Assembly: GCF_030295935.1 (NCBI RefSeq)
Contig: NZ_AP027362.1
Location: 620,001 to 684,000, forward strand
DNA: 64,000 nucleotides
Reading direction: 5' to 3'
DNA from: Thalassotalea piscium
GTDB lineage: Bacteria; Pseudomonadota; Gammaproteobacteria; Enterobacterales; Alteromonadaceae
A program made the position numbers and the translations under genes. This document shows, piece by piece, positions 43,401 to 49,386 of the stretch. Under the pieces are notes generated by a model. That model was not told the origin of the DNA and made no database searches. It was given only the letters and a program-made list of their open reading frames with translations. The first letter of the stretch is position 1, and the number at the start of each line of letters is the position of its first letter.

Positions 43401-45077
43401 CTACTTGATAATTTTCTTATACTTAATGCGGTGAGGTTCAGTAGCCGCGGCTCCAAGTGTTTTCTTCAACCATTCGTTATAATCAGTAAAGTTGCCTTCA
43501 AAGAAGTTAACTTGCCCTTCATCTCTATAGTCGAGAATATGAGTGGCAATACGGTCTAAAAACCAACGGTCATGTGAAATTACCATGGCACAACCAGGAA
43601 ACTCTAGCAATGCCTCTTCAAGTGCGCGAAGCGTTTCAATATCAAGATCGTTAGTTGGCTCATCTAGTAGTAATAAGTTACCCCCGGTTTGTACTAATTT
43701 CGCTAGATGAACACGATTACGCTCACCACCTGATAAGTCACCTATAAACTTTTGCTGATCGTTACCTTTAAAGTTAAAACGGCTACAGTATGCACGACTT
43801 GGTATTTGATAATTACCAATTTCAAGAATATCGTGGCCTTGAGAAATTTCTTGATAGACAGTGTTTTTGTCATCCATATCATCTCTAAACTGGTCAACAC
43901 TCGCTATTTTTACGGTTTCACCTAATTCAATAGTGCCTGAGTCTGGCTTTTCAGCACCAGATAGCATTTTAAATAAGGTTGACTTACCGGCACCGTTAGC
44001 GCCGATAATACCAACAATCGCACCCTTAGGAACACTAAAGCTTAACTTGTCTATTAATACTCTGTCGCCAAACGATTTAGTTAAGTTTATTACGTCTAAT
44101 ACTTTGTCGCCTAAACGAGGCCCTGGTGGAATATAAAGCTCATTCGTTTCATTACGCTTTTGATGCTCTTGATTGTTAAGTTCTTCAAACCTTGCCATAC
44201 GCGCTTTATTTTTAGACTGGCGAGCTTTAGGGTTTTGGCGTACCCATTCAAGTTCTTGCTTAATGGTTTTTTGTAAAGCGCTTTCACTTTTAGACTCTTG
44301 TTGTAAGCGTGCATCTTTTTGCTCTAACCAAGATGAGTAGTTGCCTTCCCAAGGAATACCGTAGCCACGGTCTAGTTCTAAGATCCAACCAGCAACGTTG
44401 TCTAAGAAATATCTATCATGGGTAATAGCAACAACAGTACCACTATAGTCATGTAAAAAACGCTCTAACCAAGCAACAGATTCAGCATCTAAATGGTTCG
44501 TTGGTTCATCTAACAATAACATGTCTGGTTTTTGTAAAAGCAAATGACAAAGTGCAACACGGCGGCGCTCACCACCACTAAGTACCGCAATTTTTTGATC
44601 CCAAGGTGGCAAGCGAAGCGCATCTGCTGCGCGCTCTAATGCGTTATCAATGTTGTGGCCATCGTTACTATTGATAATATCTTCTAATTGACCTTGCTCT
44701 TTAGCTAAGGCATCGAAGTCAGCACCTTCTTCGGCATATTCCATGTAAACCTGATCAAGGCGTTTCATTGCATCTTTTACTACTGAAACCGCACTTTCAA
44801 CAACTTCACGAACTGTTTTCTCTTCGTCTAGTTGCGGCTCTTGTGGCAAGTAACCAATGTTAGTACCGGTTAATGCATGTGCTTCACCTTCAAACTCGGT
44901 ATCAACACCAGCCATAATACGTAAAAGTGTTGACTTACCTGCACCATTTAAACCTAAAACACCAATTTTGGCACCGGGGAAAAAAGAAAGTGAAATGTCT
45001 TTCAAAATTGTGCGTTTTGGTGGCACAACTTTACTGACACGATTCATTGAATAGATAAATTTATCTGGCAAAGCCAT
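43401..45077 (-). CDS. ettA: Energy-dependent translational throttle protein EttA
   Basis: The 558-residue ABC-F ATPase has twin ABC domains: Walker A GLNGAGKST and GANGAGKST, signatures LSGGERRRVAL and LSGGERNRVHL, and Walker B LLLDEPTNHLD and LLLDEPTNDLD. Between them lies the charged P-site tRNA interaction motif linker (about 240-315, rich in Lys, Arg, Gln and Glu). The opening MALPDKFIYSMNRVSKVVPP is typical of EttA, and length matches (E. coli 555). EttA binds the ribosomal E site and restrains translation when the ATP/ADP ratio is low. It is monocistronic. Confidence 0.96.
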   Translation of the reverse strand: MALPDKFIYSMNRVSKVVPPKRTILKDISLSFFPGAKIGVLGLNGAGKSTLLRIMAGVDTEFEGEAHALTGTNIGYLPQEPQLDEEKTVREVVESAVSVVKDAMKRLDQVYMEYAEEGADFDALAKEQGQLEDIINSNDGHNIDNALERAADALRLPPWDQKIAVLSGGERRRVALCHLLLQKPDMLLLDEPTNHLDAESVAWLERFLHDYSGTVVAITHDRYFLDNVAGWILELDRGYGIPWEGNYSSWLEQKDARLQQESKSESALQKTIKQELEWVRQNPKARQSKNKARMARFEELNNQEHQKRNETNELYIPPGPRLGDKVLDVINLTKSFGDRVLIDKLSFSVPKGAIVGIIGANGAGKSTLFKMLSGAEKPDSGTIELGETVKIASVDQFRDDMDDKNTVYQEISQGHDILEIGNYQIPSRAYCSRFNFKGNDQQKFIGDLSGGERNRVHLAKLVQTGGNLLLLDEPTNDLDIETLRALEEALLEFPGCAMVISHDRWFLDRIATHILDYRDEGQVNFFEGNFTDYNEWLKKTLGAAATEPHRIKYKKIIK

Positions 45078-45462
45078 TGGAACAACCTTTTATTTTTAAT
45101 AGAAAATTAAATTGTTAATATTGTACAGCAACTGACGTAAATAATTGCCTATTTAGCAAGAATTATGTGGCTTTAGGCAAGGCATAGATTGTAGTGAATG
45201 GTTACTCCCTTGTCAAAATCAATAACGCTTTTAGCGCGCTGTAACGCCAGTAATATTAAGTGGGTTTTTATGGTCGTGTCATCTGTTTTAAAAATGAGTT
45301 TTTTTGTAAGCAAACTTATAATATTCGCACTGTTTTTGTCAGGTTTTTTATGCTGATGAAGGTAATATAACTATTTAAAACATATATTTAGTATGCAAAT
45401 TGTTAGTAGTTTGCTGGCATAACTGTTAAAGTTTGAATTATAACAGTTAAACTTTAATAGCT
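45078..45462. other. Divergent intergenic region; possible tiny hydrophobic ORF
   Basis: 385 bp between ettA and the three-gene operon, presumably holding both promoters. A 28-codon frame at 45270-45356 (MVVSSVLKMSFFVSKLIIFA..., ending in LC) reads as a hydrophobic peptide. It has no clear ribosome site, so I do not call it a gene. Confidence 0.4.
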
Positions 45463-46755
45463 ATGCCTAATTCTAAAATAACGTTCCGTGCAATTGCGCC
45501 TATATATTCGCCGTTGAGCTTGCACCTAGGTGTGGATCAGTTCGCGCCACAATTTATCGAATCATTAAAAGCAACTAATATAGACTACGATGATAAGCAT
45601 AACCTGCTTAATTGGAAGGGCAGGTTACTTCACCTTGGTGGTCAACAAAGTGATAAACGGCAGTATCAGTCAACAGCGTTAAACTCAAAAGATGTACGTT
45701 TAATGTGTTGGTCGCCTGAAACTAAAGAGCAGGCTAGTACCCAGGTAATGTTTCATGTTTTTACTAACCATATCGCAATTGCTGAAGTCGAACTAACAAT
45801 AGACATGGATGATTTAACTATCGAAGGAGAATCTGTTGATGCTCTTGTTTTAGGTCTTGAAGAGCAGGTGCAGCAATTAGCGCAAGCCCAAGTGGAACTA
45901 AATTTTAATGACTTTTGTAAAGATTTACAGCAACTTAAATCATTTCTCTCTGATGACTTTGTGCTCTCTAAAACAACCCCTGCGTCTAATGTTACGTGGG
46001 TTGCGCGAACAATGCTTATTGATGACACGTCGCTCGAGCAGCCAAAAATACAGGCTATATTAACTGCATGGTTAAAGAAAACAGGTAGGCCAGAAGATGC
46101 CGCCGATATTATCTCTCGTAAAATAAACTTTTCTATGACCTGGCTTAATTATGTTGTTAAAAATGCTAAAGGAGTTGGTGCTGATCCACAAATACAAATA
46201 ATGGTGCTATCCCAATATTATTACGTTTCTCAAGAAAACTGTAATAGTGGTTTACGTAGTGCAATTGAAGTTGCGTATGCTCGTGGTAGTACAAATAAAA
46301 TTGACAAGGTACTTGCTGATACCCGTACAGCTTGTCGGCTTAACCAAATTGCTTATTTTGAGAATATCAAATTCCTAAATCGTCCTAATAGGGTGCTGTT
46401 AGAAGATATTTTAACTGGTTGGCAATTTAACCAATTAGTAGAAAATTCAGAGCGGATGATTGAAATATGTAACGCGCGACTTCAAGAAGAAGATAACAAA
46501 AAGCGTGAGCGCAGCACTGTAATGACAGACCTATTACTTGTTACGTTAAGTTTTTTCGCGGTCTTTGAATTATCCCTTTATTTAACTGAATTTAGCCGAG
46601 AAATGATGAGTAGGCCAGCACTTGACTACAACGATAATAAACGCTCATTCTTTTTAGGCATTATTGCTGAGATAGATGCAGATATCATGTTTTCATTTGG
46701 CTTTTGTTTGACCCTTATTCTTATTGTTGTTTATCGCTATATAAAACGAAACTAA
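45463..46755 (+). CDS. Unrecognised protein with two C-terminal membrane helices
   Basis: I do not recognise this 430-residue protein. Visible features are a beta-rich N-terminal half (about 1-120), a helical, Gln/Leu-rich segment (about 130-170), and further helices to about 345, containing AWLKKTGRPEDAADIISRK and a long charged helix (CNARLQEEDNKKRERS). Two membrane helices lie at about 351-374 (LLLVTLSFFAVFELSLYL) and 408-426 (FGFCLTLILIVVYRY). Soluble domain, long helix, then two membrane helices loosely recalls CorA-like or DUF155/RMD1-type proteins, but there is no GMN motif and I do not assign it. It is the first gene of a tight operon; the next gene starts 2 bp after its stop. Confidence 0.8.
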   Translation: MPNSKITFRAIAPIYSPLSLHLGVDQFAPQFIESLKATNIDYDDKHNLLNWKGRLLHLGGQQSDKRQYQSTALNSKDVRLMCWSPETKEQASTQVMFHVFTNHIAIAEVELTIDMDDLTIEGESVDALVLGLEEQVQQLAQAQVELNFNDFCKDLQQLKSFLSDDFVLSKTTPASNVTWVARTMLIDDTSLEQPKIQAILTAWLKKTGRPEDAADIISRKINFSMTWLNYVVKNAKGVGADPQIQIMVLSQYYYVSQENCNSGLRSAIEVAYARGSTNKIDKVLADTRTACRLNQIAYFENIKFLNRPNRVLLEDILTGWQFNQLVENSERMIEICNARLQEEDNKKRERSTVMTDLLLVTLSFFAVFELSLYLTEFSREMMSRPALDYNDNKRSFFLGIIAEIDADIMFSFGFCLTLILIVVYRYIKRN

Positions 46756-46757
46756 TT

Positions 46758-47753
46758 ATGAAAAATATTGCTGCGTTATCGCTACTAATTATTACTGCTG
46801 CTATGTCTTTATTACTGCCTACTTGGGCCGCGCCTGTATCTGTTTCTACAAGTCAATGGGCGCCTTATATACATGCAGAAAACAAACCATTAGGTACAGC
46901 TGCAGATATACTTAGACAAGTATTAAGCCAAGATAAAGAGATAATTAATTGGCGTTATCAAAACTATGATTTAGCTTTTGAGTTAGTGGCAAATAATAAA
47001 CAAGAAGCTGCTTTTCCATACTTTAAAACTAAAGAGCGTGAGCAACGCGTTTTATACTCACAGCCCGTGCTTAGTGTAACAAGTGGCATTTATTATAATC
47101 GGCAACGAGAAGACTATTTGAACTTTTCAACGTTGAACGGTCATAAGTTTGGTCGTGTATCAGGCTACAGTTATGGTCAAGTTATAGATGCTTACCTTAC
47201 TGATGCTATTGTTTTTCCAAGTGAAAGCGATGCATTAGAAAGTTTATTTAAGAATGAAATTGATTTTTTGCCAATGACCGAAAGTGTAATGAACACCATG
47301 CTTAATTCAAGTTACAGTGACCAAGCACTTTTAATAAAGAAAATTGATAAAGTAGAAGGGCATGACACACTGCATCTTATAGCGCCAAATACTGCTGAAG
47401 GTAAAAAATTAATCAACAAAGTTAATCGGTTATTAGCGCAGGTGTCAGCTATAACCAGTTTAAAACCAAAACCAGTGCTTCGTTTTAAACCCAAAGACAT
47501 AGCAAGGCTTATCACCGCAGAAGGCTACCCTGCTATTGTTGGGCAAACATCATTAGATAGCAGTACTGATTACTACACCCTTCCGCAAGGAACTAAAGTA
47601 TTGATTTTAAACTGGAGCGATAAAATTGTAAGGCCATCAACTACAGACCGAATATATAAAAGTATGATTGATCTGAGTAAAGTTGTGGTGTTAAACGGGC
47701 CGCATGTAGGCAAAGAGCTTTATATTAAAAACATGCATTTAGAGATCCAATGA
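46758..47753 (+). CDS. Orphan periplasmic solute-binding-like protein (SBP_bac_3 type)
   Basis: About 331 residues with a signal peptide ending TWAAP. The first 240 residues follow the family 3 solute-binding fold: VSVSTSQWAPYIHAENKPLG, GTAADILRQVLSQ, NYDLAFELVANNKQEAAFPYFKTKERE and NEIDFLPMTESVMNTML. A C-terminal extension of about 90 residues (from KPVLRFKPKDIARL) is not part of that fold and looks beta-rich. No amino-acid ABC transporter genes are nearby, so it may sense rather than transport. The ATG at 46758 is 2 bp after the upstream stop and begins the signal peptide. Its stop overlaps the next start (ATGA at 47750-47753). Confidence 0.78.
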   Translation: MKNIAALSLLIITAAMSLLLPTWAAPVSVSTSQWAPYIHAENKPLGTAADILRQVLSQDKEIINWRYQNYDLAFELVANNKQEAAFPYFKTKEREQRVLYSQPVLSVTSGIYYNRQREDYLNFSTLNGHKFGRVSGYSYGQVIDAYLTDAIVFPSESDALESLFKNEIDFLPMTESVMNTMLNSSYSDQALLIKKIDKVEGHDTLHLIAPNTAEGKKLINKVNRLLAQVSAITSLKPKPVLRFKPKDIARLITAEGYPAIVGQTSLDSSTDYYTLPQGTKVLILNWSDKIVRPSTTDRIYKSMIDLSKVVVLNGPHVGKELYIKNMHLEIQ

Positions 47754-48316
47754 TTGTCGCTGTATTAGGTTGGTTTGGCTCGATATTATATTTAGTTAAT
47801 CATGGCTATATCTCAGTAAATAAAGAGTGGAAGCCGAATATATATTTTACAGGGAACCTTATTGCTGCGCTTGCTTTAGTTGCAAGCTCGTTATTGATTT
47901 CTTCTTATCAGGCAGTGGTAATCAATGGTTTTTGGGCTTTAATCTCGATACTGTTAATTATCAAGTTTGATATGAGCACAATCGCCTTTTCAAAGCGTGC
48001 TTTCTATTTAGGGCTTATATTGATACTGGCTTGGTCAGCATACATTGCATACAAGCATGGCATTAATTCACTCGCGTTTTTTACTTATTTAGGGTGGTCT
48101 TCTAGCTATGTTTTTTGTCTTTCATATTTTTTATTTTGTAGTAAAAAATTAAACCGTATTAGCTACTTGTTACTTAATGCTTTTGCCGCAAGTGCACTTT
48201 TACCTATTTTATGGAGGCAAGAAAATTGGCCAGTATTTAGTCTTGAAATATGTTGGGTGTTAATATCAATTTATGGTGCGTATACACAGGTTGACGAAGT
48301 ACACCTAATTGATTAA
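47750..48316 (+). CDS. Six- to seven-helix membrane protein with duplicated CBU_0592-like domain
   Basis: The 188-residue protein is almost entirely membrane helices. The first half, beginning VLGWFGSILYLVNHGYIS and continuing NIYFTGNLIAALALVASSLL with FWALISILLI, matches the three-helix pattern I know as the CBU_0592-like domain. The second half (about 95-188: LGWSSSYVFCLSYFLF, SYLLLNAFAASALLP, LEICWVLISIYG) repeats it. The function of that domain is unknown. It is translationally coupled to the solute-binding-like protein through a 4-bp overlap, suggesting a membrane partner. Confidence 0.7.
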   Translation: MIVAVLGWFGSILYLVNHGYISVNKEWKPNIYFTGNLIAALALVASSLLISSYQAVVINGFWALISILLIIKFDMSTIAFSKRAFYLGLILILAWSAYIAYKHGINSLAFFTYLGWSSSYVFCLSYFLFCSKKLNRISYLLLNAFAASALLPILWRQENWPVFSLEICWVLISIYGAYTQVDEVHLID

Positions 48317-48320
48317 TTTT

Positions 48321-48347
48321 TTCTAATACTTTCTAATACTTTCTAAT
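48321..48347 (+). repeat. Short tandem repeat after the operon
   Basis: The 10-mer TCTAATACTT occurs twice in tandem (48321-48340), followed by a third partial copy TCTAATG. It lies just past the stop codon of the membrane protein. Confidence 0.6.
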
Positions 48348-48363
48348 GTTTAAATAAAGTGAC

Positions 48364-48382
48364 TAGGGCGTGTTGAACTTTT
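48364..48382 (+). repeat. Solo terminal repeat of MITE family A
   Basis: TAGGGCGTGTTGAACTTTT matches the family A end, including the TA edge, but no second end or family A interior follows. It appears to be a remnant. Confidence 0.6.
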
Positions 48383-48421
48383 CAAGCCTGATATATTCGT
48401 TTTTAGTTAACCACTGGAAAG

Positions 48422-48628
48422 TTATGGGTTAATAACTTTTTTGCGCGCATCTTTGTATTCTTGGTAAGTTTTATGCTCTTTGAGAAGGCATTCATTGTAT
48501 TGCGCTTCGTTTTGCGCTTTATCAATGCAGTCGCTCTTTTGGTAATCTTTCCCCAAATTGTATAAGTCTTTGTTGGTGCAGGCAGCCAGCAATATTAATG
48601 AAGAAACGAAAGTCAGTAACTTGTTCAT
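48422..48628 (-). CDS. Small lipoprotein of unknown function
   Basis: The 68-residue protein begins MNKLLTFVSSLILLAACTNK: a lipoprotein signal with lipobox LAAC (Cys17). The mature part is short, charged and contains two further cysteines (DCIDKA and ECLLKE) spaced about 13 residues apart, possibly a disulfide. An AGGT ribosome site precedes the start. No homologue is recognised; the lipobox makes it a credible gene despite its size. Confidence 0.75.
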   Translation of the reverse strand: MNKLLTFVSSLILLAACTNKDLYNLGKDYQKSDCIDKAQNEAQYNECLLKEHKTYQEYKDARKKVINP

Positions 48629-48732
48629 GTAGTACCTATTTTACCTAAATTCACGCTATTTAAGCAGGCTGTGCTAGTTAGCCTTAATTCTTGATAAGCA
48701 ATGTTATGCTATTAAACGCAGCTCGCTTTTAC

Positions 48733-49386
48733 TTATTTACTGCCAGAAAATATAACAGGCTCACTACTCAATTTCCATAAAGGATATTTAGCCATAACCT
48801 TAGTAAACATCGCACTTTGTAAATAGTGTTTAAGCCACTTTTTTAGGTTGGGATAAGGCGACTGTAAATACCACTGACGTTCTACACGAGCAAACTGGCG
48901 AATAAAAGGTAAAATAGCAATATCTGCAAGACTTTCTTCAGTGTTAATAAGGTAATTGCCTTTGTTTAGTCGCTGCTCTATCTCTTGAATATAAAGTTCA
49001 CACTTCTCTCTGCATTGTTCTATGTTAGCTTCATGATAACGTTTGGCACATTTATATTGCTCTAGTGCTTGCTTAAATTCGTGATCAAACCGATGAATTA
49101 AAGTTAGCATGTTATGTAGTTGCTCTTTATTAGCGCCGAGTAAACCGTATGGGTCATTTGTATTTAGTGCCCATAGCATTACGTCTAAACTTTCATCAAC
49201 CACCTTTCCTGATGGAAGTACTAAAGTAGGCACTGTACCTTTAGGCGAAGCAAGTAACATTTCTTTAGGTTTATTTTTTAATACAATATCACGTAGTTCA
49301 ATAGGCACTGACGACCGATAAATAGCGATTCGGGCGCGCATGGCATATGGACAATTTCTTAACGAATACAATATAGGTAATGTCAT
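48733..49386 (-). CDS. Glutathione S-transferase family protein with CPYA motif
   Basis: The 217-residue protein begins MTLPILYSLRNCPYAMRARIAI. The CPYA motif is in the position of the catalytic Cys of omega-class GSTs and glutaredoxin 2. SPKGTVPTLVLPSGKVVDESLDVMLWAL follows, the cis-Pro and glutathione-binding Glu-Ser pair, and the C-terminal helical domain has ESLADIAILPFIRQFARV. A thiol-transfer role is more likely than classical conjugation. It stands alone, divergent from the redox cluster starting at 49644. Confidence 0.88.
   Translation of the reverse strand: MTLPILYSLRNCPYAMRARIAIYRSSVPIELRDIVLKNKPKEMLLASPKGTVPTLVLPSGKVVDESLDVMLWALNTNDPYGLLGANKEQLHNMLTLIHRFDHEFKQALEQYKCAKRYHEANIEQCREKCELYIQEIEQRLNKGNYLINTEESLADIAILPFIRQFARVERQWYLQSPYPNLKKWLKHYLQSAMFTKVMAKYPLWKLSSEPVIFSGSK

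What the first reader, a model, noticed from the sequence alone, without database searches (positions are those of the whole stretch)
45463..48316. Tight three-gene operon of unknown function: two-helix protein, orphan solute-binding protein, duplicated CBU_0592-like membrane protein
Seen: the three genes are separated by 2 bp and then overlap by 4 bp, so they are co-translated. The middle protein is a secreted family 3 binding fold with an extra beta-rich ~90-residue C-terminal domain, and there are no ABC transporter genes nearby. The third is an all-membrane protein made of two similar halves of a domain with no known function. The first has a large soluble part and two C-terminal helices and matches nothing I recognise. 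Inference: this could be a ligand-sensing or envelope-signalling system in which the binding protein talks to the two membrane proteins. It is the best candidate in the window for an undescribed system.
Basis: partly seen in the sequence, partly recalled or inferred. Interest (0 to 1): 0.72.

Follow-up and report, generated by a model that had tools for sequence, protein, structure and literature searches.

The report
Undescribed three-part binding-protein membrane system
Three adjacent genes in a marine bacterium encode a periplasmic binding protein and two membrane proteins that are inherited together in the relatives found, and look like a new kind of nutrient importer or sensor.

Summary
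The operon is real (A 45463-46755, B 46758-47753, C 47750-48316; gap 2 bp, overlap 4 bp). Of 21 distinct genomes found with A, 20 keep A-B-C adjacent and in order; in one (G090) C lies about 740 kb from A-B. A and full-length C occur in the same 14 of 147 family genomes and the same 7 of 295 order genomes; class-wide draws found each only in the window's own genome (1 of 369, 1 of 293).

Anatomy: B is a family-3 binding protein with a private, more conserved C-terminal domain. C has 3+1+3 helices in a confident model (pLDDT 93), with mirrored conserved W/N/Y/G residues; its best solved-fold match is the vitamin transporter PnuC, without detectable sequence kinship. A has a cytosolic domain, long stalk and two C-terminal helices; its top structural matches are CorA channels, but weakly, without GMN motif or sequence kinship.

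Best reading (0.45): a binding-protein-dependent uptake system in which B feeds a PnuC-like pore (C), with A as gate or scaffold. No binding-protein-dependent transporter class I tested has these parts. Interaction, ligand and function are inferred.

The parts
45463..46755 (+). Gene A: 430-aa protein, cytosolic alpha/beta and helical domain, long stalk helix, two C-terminal membrane helices; CorA-like layout, no known family
46525..46593 (+). A, TM1 (residues 355-377); acid at residue 369 (E 17, D 4 of 21) in mid-helix
46594..46677 (+). A, short periplasmic segment between TM1 and TM2 (residues 378-405): most conserved part of A (65.6% mean pairwise identity); low model confidence at 386-394
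46678..46749 (+). A, TM2 (residues 406-429)
46758..47753 (+). Gene B: 331-aa periplasmic solute-binding protein, family 3, with extra C-terminal domain
46758..46832 (+). B, signal peptide (about residues 1-25, by inspection and hydropathy); no lipobox by pattern
   Evidence: and inspection
46833..47477 (+). B, SBP_bac_3 domain (about residues 26-240); invariant Arg94; position of the usual amine-binding Asp is T/A/S
47478..47750 (+). B, private C-terminal domain (residues 241-331), 53.7% mean pairwise identity against 40.9% for the binding domain; proposed docking domain
47750..48316 (+). Gene C: 188-aa membrane protein, two CBU_0592 units joined by a linker helix (3+1+3)
47753..47965 (+). C, first three-helix unit (residues 2-72)
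47993..48058 (+). C, linker helix TM4 (residues 82-103), little conserved (19.6% over residues 80-105)
48071..48289 (+). C, second three-helix unit (residues 108-180)

Best explanation
A-B-C is a self-contained, binding-protein-dependent uptake system of a class that I did not find described in the papers I could search. Step 1 (inferred): B closes in the periplasm on a small molecule bearing a carboxylate but probably not an ordinary alpha-amino acid. Step 2 (inferred): loaded B docks through its private C-terminal domain on the periplasmic face formed by A's conserved TM1-TM2 connection and C. Step 3 (inferred from fold and conservation): the ligand passes through C, a 3+1+3 PnuC-like pore with mirrored Trp/Asn/Tyr residues. 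Step 4 (most speculative): A, a CorA-shaped subunit that may be oligomeric, gates or scaffolds the pore, and the acid in its first membrane helix may couple a cation or proton. Shown by computation: the unit, its co-inheritance, the domain make-up, the internal duplication and 3+1+3 model of C, and where conservation concentrates. Not shown: any interaction, ligand or transport.
For: Gene order kept in 20 of 21 distinct genomes. A, full-length B and full-length C occur in the same 14 of 147 family genomes; A and full-length C in the same 7 of 295 order genomes. In G090 the set is complete although C lies about 740 kb from A-B. C's model is confident (pLDDT 93.2, pTM 0.87) and 3+1+3. Best match among the 1000 PDB chains aligned is PnuC 4qtn: VIA Z 10.8, rmsd 5.6, 166 residues; next entry 7.2 (transhydrogenase); SWEET entries 5.0-5.2 over 102 residues. 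Foldseek lists SWEET13 and PnuC second and third, weakly (E 0.42 and 0.52). Halves of C homologous (hhalign probability 89, E 2.2e-6). Nine positions of the first half that are the same residue in at least 19 of 21 proteins recur, as the same residue and equally conserved, 107 or 108 residues on (G7, W8, Y32, N36, A39, A40, L43, W62, S66; A39 counts at both offsets, statistic 10); 1 of 20,000 label shuffles reached this. Loop charges give N-out. B's Arg94 aligns with an Arg of amino-acid-binding proteins and is invariant, 21 of 21. The most conserved parts are A's TM1 and periplasmic segment, B's C-terminal domain and both C bundles.
Against: No sequence kinship of C to PnuC or SemiSWEET (hhalign probability at most 1.2); a Z of 10.8 is below the ~13 advised for helical bundles, and Foldseek's own first hit for C is a transhydrogenase with no hit under E 0.24. 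A's CorA likeness is weak (Foldseek E 9.3e-3 at best, TM 0.33 or less, rmsd 10-17). C's tail, placed inside, is net acidic (K+R 1.14, D+E 1.81). PnuC-type proteins are not known (recall) to use binding proteins. No neighbour that would name a substrate recurs widely and no riboswitch was found in the window stretch, so the ligand is unknown. I saw no fusion of B to A or C in the 21 genomes. A conserved cytosolic domain of about 350 residues is more than a simple transporter needs. The relatives all lie in one order, so the linkage has not been tested over wide distances.
Confidence: 0.45

Rival explanations
1. A ligand sensor: B binds a signal molecule, docks on A and C, and A's large cytosolic domain passes the signal to an unknown partner. 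C serves as receptor membrane part rather than pore.
For: A's cytosolic half holds many invariant residues (W179, R182, D212, W227, Y230, D241, Q251, Q257, N261 in 21 of 21). Family-3 binding domains often sit in sensors (recall). No substrate-naming neighbour recurs widely.
Against: A matches no catalytic or DNA-binding family above cut-off (best Pfam E 0.033 over 13 proteins). Apart from A, B and C no gene family lies in more than 5 of the 23 loci compared, so no regulator or kinase travels with the unit. C has a duplicated, polar-residue-rich transporter-like fold, more than a signal relay needs.
Confidence: 0.25
2. A ligand-gated ion channel: A forms a CorA-shaped oligomeric cation pore opened or closed by B, with C as accessory subunit.
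For: The ten best Foldseek matches of A are all CorA; the top viral-library match is a phage Mg2+ transporter (weak, E 0.14). Cytosolic N part, stalk continuous with TM1, short periplasmic segment, TM2. Acid in mid TM1 in 21 of 21.
Against: No GMN or GIN in the TM1-TM2 segment of 21 of 21 rows, no profile similarity to CorA, low TM-scores. The genome already has a true CorA. Leaves C's transporter-like fold unexplained.
Confidence: 0.13
3. An envelope assembly or maintenance complex in which the binding-protein fold has been reused as a structural part and binds no free ligand.
For: B's C-terminal domain is more conserved than its binding domain (53.7% against 40.9%). The position of the usual amine-binding Asp is T, A or S in 21 of 21.
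Against: Arg94 and the Ser138-Tyr139-Gly140 stretch of the binding domain are invariant, 21 of 21, which is not expected if no ligand is bound. The operon is absent from most relatives (A in 14 of 147), so it is no core envelope function.
Confidence: 0.13
4. Chance neighbours with unrelated functions.
For: One genome (G090) has C away from A-B.
Against: 20 of 21 genomes keep the order; all-or-none presence in 147 and 295 genomes; G090 still keeps all three. Pairwise distances of A, B and C correlate (0.90-0.96), though shared species history alone can give this.
Confidence: 0.02

Closest known systems
PnuC vitamin B3 transporter (PF04973; 4QTN)
   Same: C: 3+1+3 helices, best solved-fold match by a margin (Z 10.8, next 7.2), parallel repeats by loop charge.
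   Different: No sequence similarity; not matched by the PnuC Pfam model; C's halves belong to CBU_0592; C is tied to a binding protein and to A. The genome has a separate true PnuC.
SWEET / SemiSWEET
   Same: Tandem three-helix units joined by a little-conserved linker helix; conserved Trp/Asn in both halves (the SWEET residues are recalled).
   Different: Structural match covers only 102 residues and leaves out TM1. PMC7162841 (passages) states that SWEET bundles run 1-3-2 and PnuC bundles 1-2-3; this suggests, without proving, that C is on the PnuC side.
CBU_0592 family membrane protein (NF047864)
   Same: C matches this family with two stretches.
   Different: The weaker matches to C's profile in genomes without A are open frames of about 82-125 aa that match one unit (not themselves scanned against NF047864); the tandem form was found only in genomes with A and B.
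CorA / Mrs2 / ZntB channels
   Same: A: soluble N part, long stalk running into TM1, short periplasmic link, C-terminal TM2; the ten top Foldseek hits.
   Different: No GMN, no sequence kinship, low TM-scores.
TRAP, TTT and TAXI-GltS binding-protein-dependent secondary transporters
   Same: Binding protein gene closely coupled to genes of membrane subunits without an ATPase. TAXI-GltS (PMC12344293; abstract, introduction and one results section read) is the precedent for a binding protein recruited by an unrelated transporter.
   Different: None of their membrane families is matched by A or C; the binding protein is family 3, the kind used by ABC importers.
Polar amino-acid ABC importer binding proteins (e.g. 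3TQL)
   Same: B's first ~235 residues.
   Different: No permease or ATPase of such an importer in the operon; extra C-terminal domain; amine-binding Asp position changed.

Membership tests
SBP_bac_3 (PF00497) | Pfam model above gathering score | tested here: met
   B, 30.5 against 26.4 bits
CBU_0592 family (NF047864) | NCBIfam model above cut-off | tested here: met
   C of the window, 47.5 against 25 bits, two stretches; 12 of 12 rows of A3 match at E <= 0.1, best 1.4e-14
PnuC (PF04973) | Sequence model match | tested here: not met
   0 of 12 rows of A3 match PF04973 at E <= 0.5; hhalign of 21 C proteins against 24 PnuC proteins probability 0.1
PnuC (PF04973) | 3+1+3 fold with parallel three-helix bundles | tested here: inconclusive
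   Seven helices in a confident model; PnuC Z 10.8 over 166 residues, rmsd 5.6, but below the ~13 advised for helical proteins
SWEET / SemiSWEET (PF03083) | Sequence model match | tested here: not met
   0 of 12 rows of A3 match PF03083 at E <= 0.5; hhalign with 19 proteins picked from SemiSWEET loci probability at most 1.2
SWEET / SemiSWEET (PF03083) | 1-3-2 helix order in each bundle | tested here: inconclusive
   SWEET alignments begin after TM1 and cover 102 residues; coordinates not available for direct tracing
CorA (PF01544) | GMN (or GIN) motif at the end of TM1 | tested here: not met
   Absent from the TM1-TM2 segment in 21 of 21 rows printed
CorA (PF01544) | Sequence model match | tested here: not met
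   0 of 13 A proteins match PF01544 at E <= 0.5; hhalign against 5 CorA proteins probability 0.2
CorA (PF01544) | Cytosolic alpha/beta domain, stalk helix into TM1, C-terminal TM2, pentamer | tested here: inconclusive
   Layout seen in the model and CorA tops Foldseek, but TM-scores low; pentamer not testable here
DUF155/RMND1 (PF02582) | Sequence kinship to A | tested here: inconclusive
   No PF02582 match among 13 A proteins at E <= 0.5; hhalign with only two DUF155 proteins probability 0.1
ABC importer | Permease and ATPase encoded with the binding protein | tested here: not met
   Neither A nor C matches a permease or ATPase family; the ABC-cassette gene upstream is divergent, and an ABC-cassette gene is near the operon in only 5 of 23 loci compared
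TRAP transporter | DctP or TAXI binding protein with DctQ/DctM membrane subunits | tested here: not met
   No such Pfam matches in A, B or C at E <= 1
Tripartite tricarboxylate transporter | TctA/TctB/TctC families | tested here: not met
   No such Pfam matches in A, B or C at E <= 1
TAXI-GltS | TAXI binding protein with GltS | tested here: not met
   No such Pfam matches in A, B or C at E <= 1
Binding-protein-dependent transporter (any class) | Ligand binding by B and B-dependent uptake | not testable with these tools
   Needs experiment

The most novel reading that the evidence does not exclude
A-B-C founds a new class of binding-protein-dependent transporter: a family-3 binding protein feeding a PnuC-fold pore made by tandem duplication of a half-size three-helix unit (CBU_0592), held and gated by a CorA-shaped subunit. 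If so, single-unit CBU_0592 proteins would be living examples of the half-size 'semiPnu' ancestor that has been postulated for PnuC (hypothesis as reported in PMC7162841, passages).
Probability: 0.22. Interest if true: 0.85.

Novelty: new variant of a known kind. Interest (0 to 1): 0.62.

Why it matters
According to the introduction of PMC12344293, three main transporter families (ABC, TTT, TRAP) use binding proteins, and that paper adds TAXI-GltS. A further class built on unrelated membrane parts would show that recruitment of binding proteins is more general than thought, and would assign function to an orphan binding protein, to a membrane family that I found no paper about under its name (CBU_0592) and to a protein with no family at all (A). 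C also offers a way to test how seven-helix PnuC-like transporters arose from half-size units. All of this is testable with one operon in a laboratory host.

Tried and rejected
Sequence searches for A: Pfam, NCBIfam, PADLOC, PHROGs and PDB sequences gave nothing convincing (best: NCBIfam E 0.0053 far below cut-off; Pfam 0.033; PHROG 0.073; PDB 0.64; PADLOC none at E <= 0.1). Profile comparison of A with 5 CorA proteins and with two DUF155 proteins, and of C with PnuC and SemiSWEET: no kinship detected. In one search the script took the most hydrophobic frame across the middle of each locus, without checking each against the family; 1 of 25 PnuC loci and 6 of 25 SemiSWEET loci gave none and were left out. 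In one search two of seven CorA loci (L052, L056) gave no frame with the motif and were left out.

Mobile-element or defence origin: no match of A in plasmids or phages; in viral contigs 17 stretches matched a pattern and none was confirmed; none of A, B, C in PADLOC. B's binding domain does match a phage protein family of unknown function (phrog_10776, E 6.9e-6), and its C-terminal domain one weakly (phrog_11930, E 0.013); not followed.

A clue to the ligand from surroundings: one search compared 23 loci (the 21 genomes, two of them twice). Beyond A, B and C the widest family is ABC-cassette proteins in 5 loci, at different places; other repeats are either clade-specific sets or families shared by two to four loci (for example L015/L040, L017/L040, L010/L041). 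I did not name these families. The cobalamin riboswitch and TonB-receptor gene beside the operon in Thalassotalea-type genomes and the guanidine-I riboswitch in L018/L019 are each confined to one clade, so I did not read them as the ligand. Rfam was run on 19 of these 23 loci (not L014, L034, L035; the window only over 45000-48800, no match at E <= 1). Promoter-like sites in the window stretch were fewer than in shuffles (11 against 14.0).

The split genome G090: A and B group with L038 (100/99 and 95/95), C with L041 (80/78). A's data reject A's joining L041 (p 5e-78), but C's data do not reject C's joining L038 (p 0.078). A replaced C is therefore suggestive only.

Viral-library fold search of A: best E 0.14. 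B's C-terminal domain: no PDB sequence match (the four listed hits, E 0.59-1.5, two of them toxin chains, look like chance and were not followed). I thought of SH3-like by eye, with no supporting call.
Full report
WHAT IS THERE. The three open frames are exactly as described: A 45463-46755 (430 aa), B 46758-47753 (331 aa), C 47750-48316 (188 aa), all on the plus strand, with a 2-bp gap and a 4-bp overlap. Upstream lies a divergent ATP-binding-cassette protein gene (ABC-F type by recall), downstream a convergent 68-aa gene that looks like a lipoprotein by inspection and a glutathione-S-transferase-like gene, so the unit is these three genes. The genome is one contig of 3.9 Mb with one copy of A and one of C.

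IS IT A UNIT. I collected A relatives from an order-wide search (7 of 295 genomes), a family-wide profile search (14 of 147), a class-wide one (own genome only, 1 of 369) and a scan of genome contigs (7 loci, named Colwellia, Marinifaba and Thalassotalea). The order and family draws share three positives, giving 18 genomes; four of the seven contig loci are genomes already held (judged by matching contig lengths and coordinates), so 21 distinct genomes remain. In 20 of them A, B and C are adjacent, in this order and on one strand, with spacers from -29 to +24 bp by the start codons used. In the remaining one, G090, A-B are together at 2.19 Mb and C is alone at 1.45 Mb next to a dehydrogenase-like gene (by inspection).

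FLANKS. Over 23 loci (the 21 genomes, two of them twice), A, B and C are the only widely shared genes. The next widest family, ABC-cassette proteins, is in 5 loci at different positions; one of these, in L016, is about 72% identical to the window's upstream neighbour and lies about 2 kb on the other side of the operon. Other recurrences are clade-specific sets or families shared by two to four loci.

CO-OCCURRENCE. In the 147 family genomes, full-length C (E 7.2e-62 or better) is found in exactly the 14 genomes that have A; seven other genomes have only weak partial matches (E 2.6e-7 or worse). B-type binding domains are common (105 of 147), but among the matches listed those reaching the end of B's C-terminal domain (E 1.1e-88 or better) are in the same 14; the next best is E 3.8e-24, and no other listed match runs past position 249 of 329 (the list is cut at the weak end). 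In the 295 order genomes (by size and tallies the same draw in both calls) full-length C is in the same 7 as A, and four others have weak partial matches. In 293 class genomes full-length C is only in the window's own. All-or-none inheritance holds even where the operon is split. The three proteins' distance matrices correlate (A-B 0.96, A-C 0.90, B-C 0.92), which by itself could be species history.

PROTEIN B. Family-3 solute-binding domain, nearest solved relatives arginine- and polar-amino-acid-binding proteins, signal peptide without lipobox (by pattern). Arg94, invariant in 21 of 21, aligns with the Arg that in such proteins holds the ligand's carboxylate (role recalled). The Asp that usually holds the amine (role recalled) is replaced by Thr (16), Ala (3) or Ser (2). 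A carboxylate that is not a plain alpha-amino acid is therefore a fair guess at the ligand. The last ~90 residues match no solved sequence, match one phage family of unknown function weakly (E 0.013) and are more conserved than the binding domain (53.7% against 40.9%), as expected of a docking surface.

PROTEIN C. All 12 rows of A3 match NCBIfam's CBU_0592 family, a name that no paper in the searched library holds. The halves are homologous (hhalign probability 89, E 2.2e-6). The AlphaFold2 model from 12 sequences is confident (pLDDT 93.2, pTM 0.87) and has seven helices: three, a linker, three. The linker is the least conserved part (19.6% against 54.9% and 52.6%). Charges put loops 1-2, 3-4 and 5-6 inside (1.4-1.8 K+R against 0-0.14), hence N-terminus out; the tail, which should then be inside, is net acidic. 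Nine positions of the first half conserved in at least 19 of 21 proteins recur in the second as the same residue, equally conserved, 107 or 108 residues on (G7, W8, Y32, N36, A39, A40, L43, W62, S66); 1 of 20,000 shuffles of the residue labels did as well. Of 1000 PDB chains aligned, PnuC stands first (Z 10.8, 166 residues, rmsd 5.6) with the next, transhydrogenases, at 7.2; SWEET is at 5.0-5.2 over 102 residues without TM1. PMC7162841 (passages) explains that PnuC bundles are ordered 1-2-3 and SWEET bundles 1-3-2, with a better match once TM1/TM5 are ignored; this fits C being on the PnuC side. Against this stand the weak Foldseek E-values (0.24 for a transhydrogenase ranked first, 0.42 for SWEET13, 0.52 for PnuC), the warning about helical bundles and the absence of sequence kinship.

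PROTEIN A. No family. The model (pLDDT 79, pTM 0.73) shows an alpha/beta and helical cytosolic part, a 62-residue helix running into TM1, a short low-confidence link and TM2. The ten best Foldseek hits are all CorA (best E 9.3e-3, probability 0.99), but with TM-scores of 0.33 or less and rmsd 10-17. VIA gives CorA Z 8.7 over 102 residues, within the range common for helical proteins. The GMN motif is absent and profiles do not match. I therefore say 'CorA-like layout', not 'CorA'. The most conserved stretches are TM1 (64.5%) and the periplasmic link (65.6%), against 23-48% in the cytosolic parts and stalk and 47% in TM2. An acid sits in mid TM1 in 21 of 21 (17 E, 4 D).

HOW IT MOST LIKELY WORKS. 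Conservation concentrates where B, A and C would meet: B's C-terminal domain, A's periplasmic link and TM1, and C's bundles. With a transporter-like C and a ligand-competent B, uptake is the simplest reading (0.45). B delivers a carboxylated small molecule to C; A gates, scaffolds or energises. A sensor (0.25), a ligand-gated cation channel (0.13) and an envelope complex with a reused binding fold (0.13) remain open. Interaction, ligand, direction and energy source are all unshown.

COMPARISON WITH THE KNOWN. PMC12344293 (introduction) names ABC, TTT and TRAP as the main users of binding proteins and reports TAXI-GltS as a new class, argued from gene linkage, translational overlap and fusions. 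Here the same kind of linkage evidence exists without fusions, over one order only, and none of those classes' membrane parts is matched. I found no description of this gene set; the searches were 'CBU_0592', PnuC with binding protein and SWEET, PnuC with SemiSWEET, binding-protein-dependent transporters, SemiPnu, PnuC with facilitated diffusion and orphan binding protein, CorA-like, PnuC-like. The library lacks most subscription papers. I rate it a new variant of a known kind (binding-protein-dependent membrane systems). It would deserve 'categorically new' if uptake through a CBU_0592 pore were shown.

Noticed in passing
L114-L121 (e.g. L114, L115, L116): Short open frames (about 89-105 aa, one with stops inside) matching mostly the second unit of C's profile, in genomes where full-length C was not found: half-size relatives of C, possible stand-ins for the postulated 'semiPnu' ancestor.
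   Followed up: partly
L051:5838-6398 (-) and L015:4525-6803 (-), genome G090: C lies about 740 kb from A-B and its nearest relative (L041) differs from that of A and B (L038); possibly a replaced subunit (not decisive).
   Followed up: partly
L018:8984-9097 (+), L019:5700-5813 (-): Guanidine-I riboswitch in front of genes that run away from A-B-C in two genomes and include an ATP-binding-cassette protein.
   Followed up: no
L013:3744-3900 (+), L033:2992-3148 (+): Cobalamin riboswitch before a TonB-dependent receptor gene with A-B-C directly behind it in Thalassotalea-type genomes; cobalamin-type genes further upstream in L013.
   Followed up: partly
window 46758-47753 (B): B's binding domain matches phage protein family phrog_10776 (E 6.9e-6) and its C-terminal domain phrog_11930 weakly (E 0.013), both of unknown function.
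   Followed up: no
window 48422-48628 (-): 68-aa protein with a lipoprotein-like start converging on C; no family above cut-off.
   Followed up: no
window 48320-48349: Short direct repeat (tttctaatac twice, then tttctaatgt) right after the stop of C.
   Followed up: no
own genome C1:1833330, 1250197, 2048779: The genome also holds a true PnuC, a true CorA and a DUF155 protein, so A and C are not its only proteins of these shapes.
   Followed up: yes
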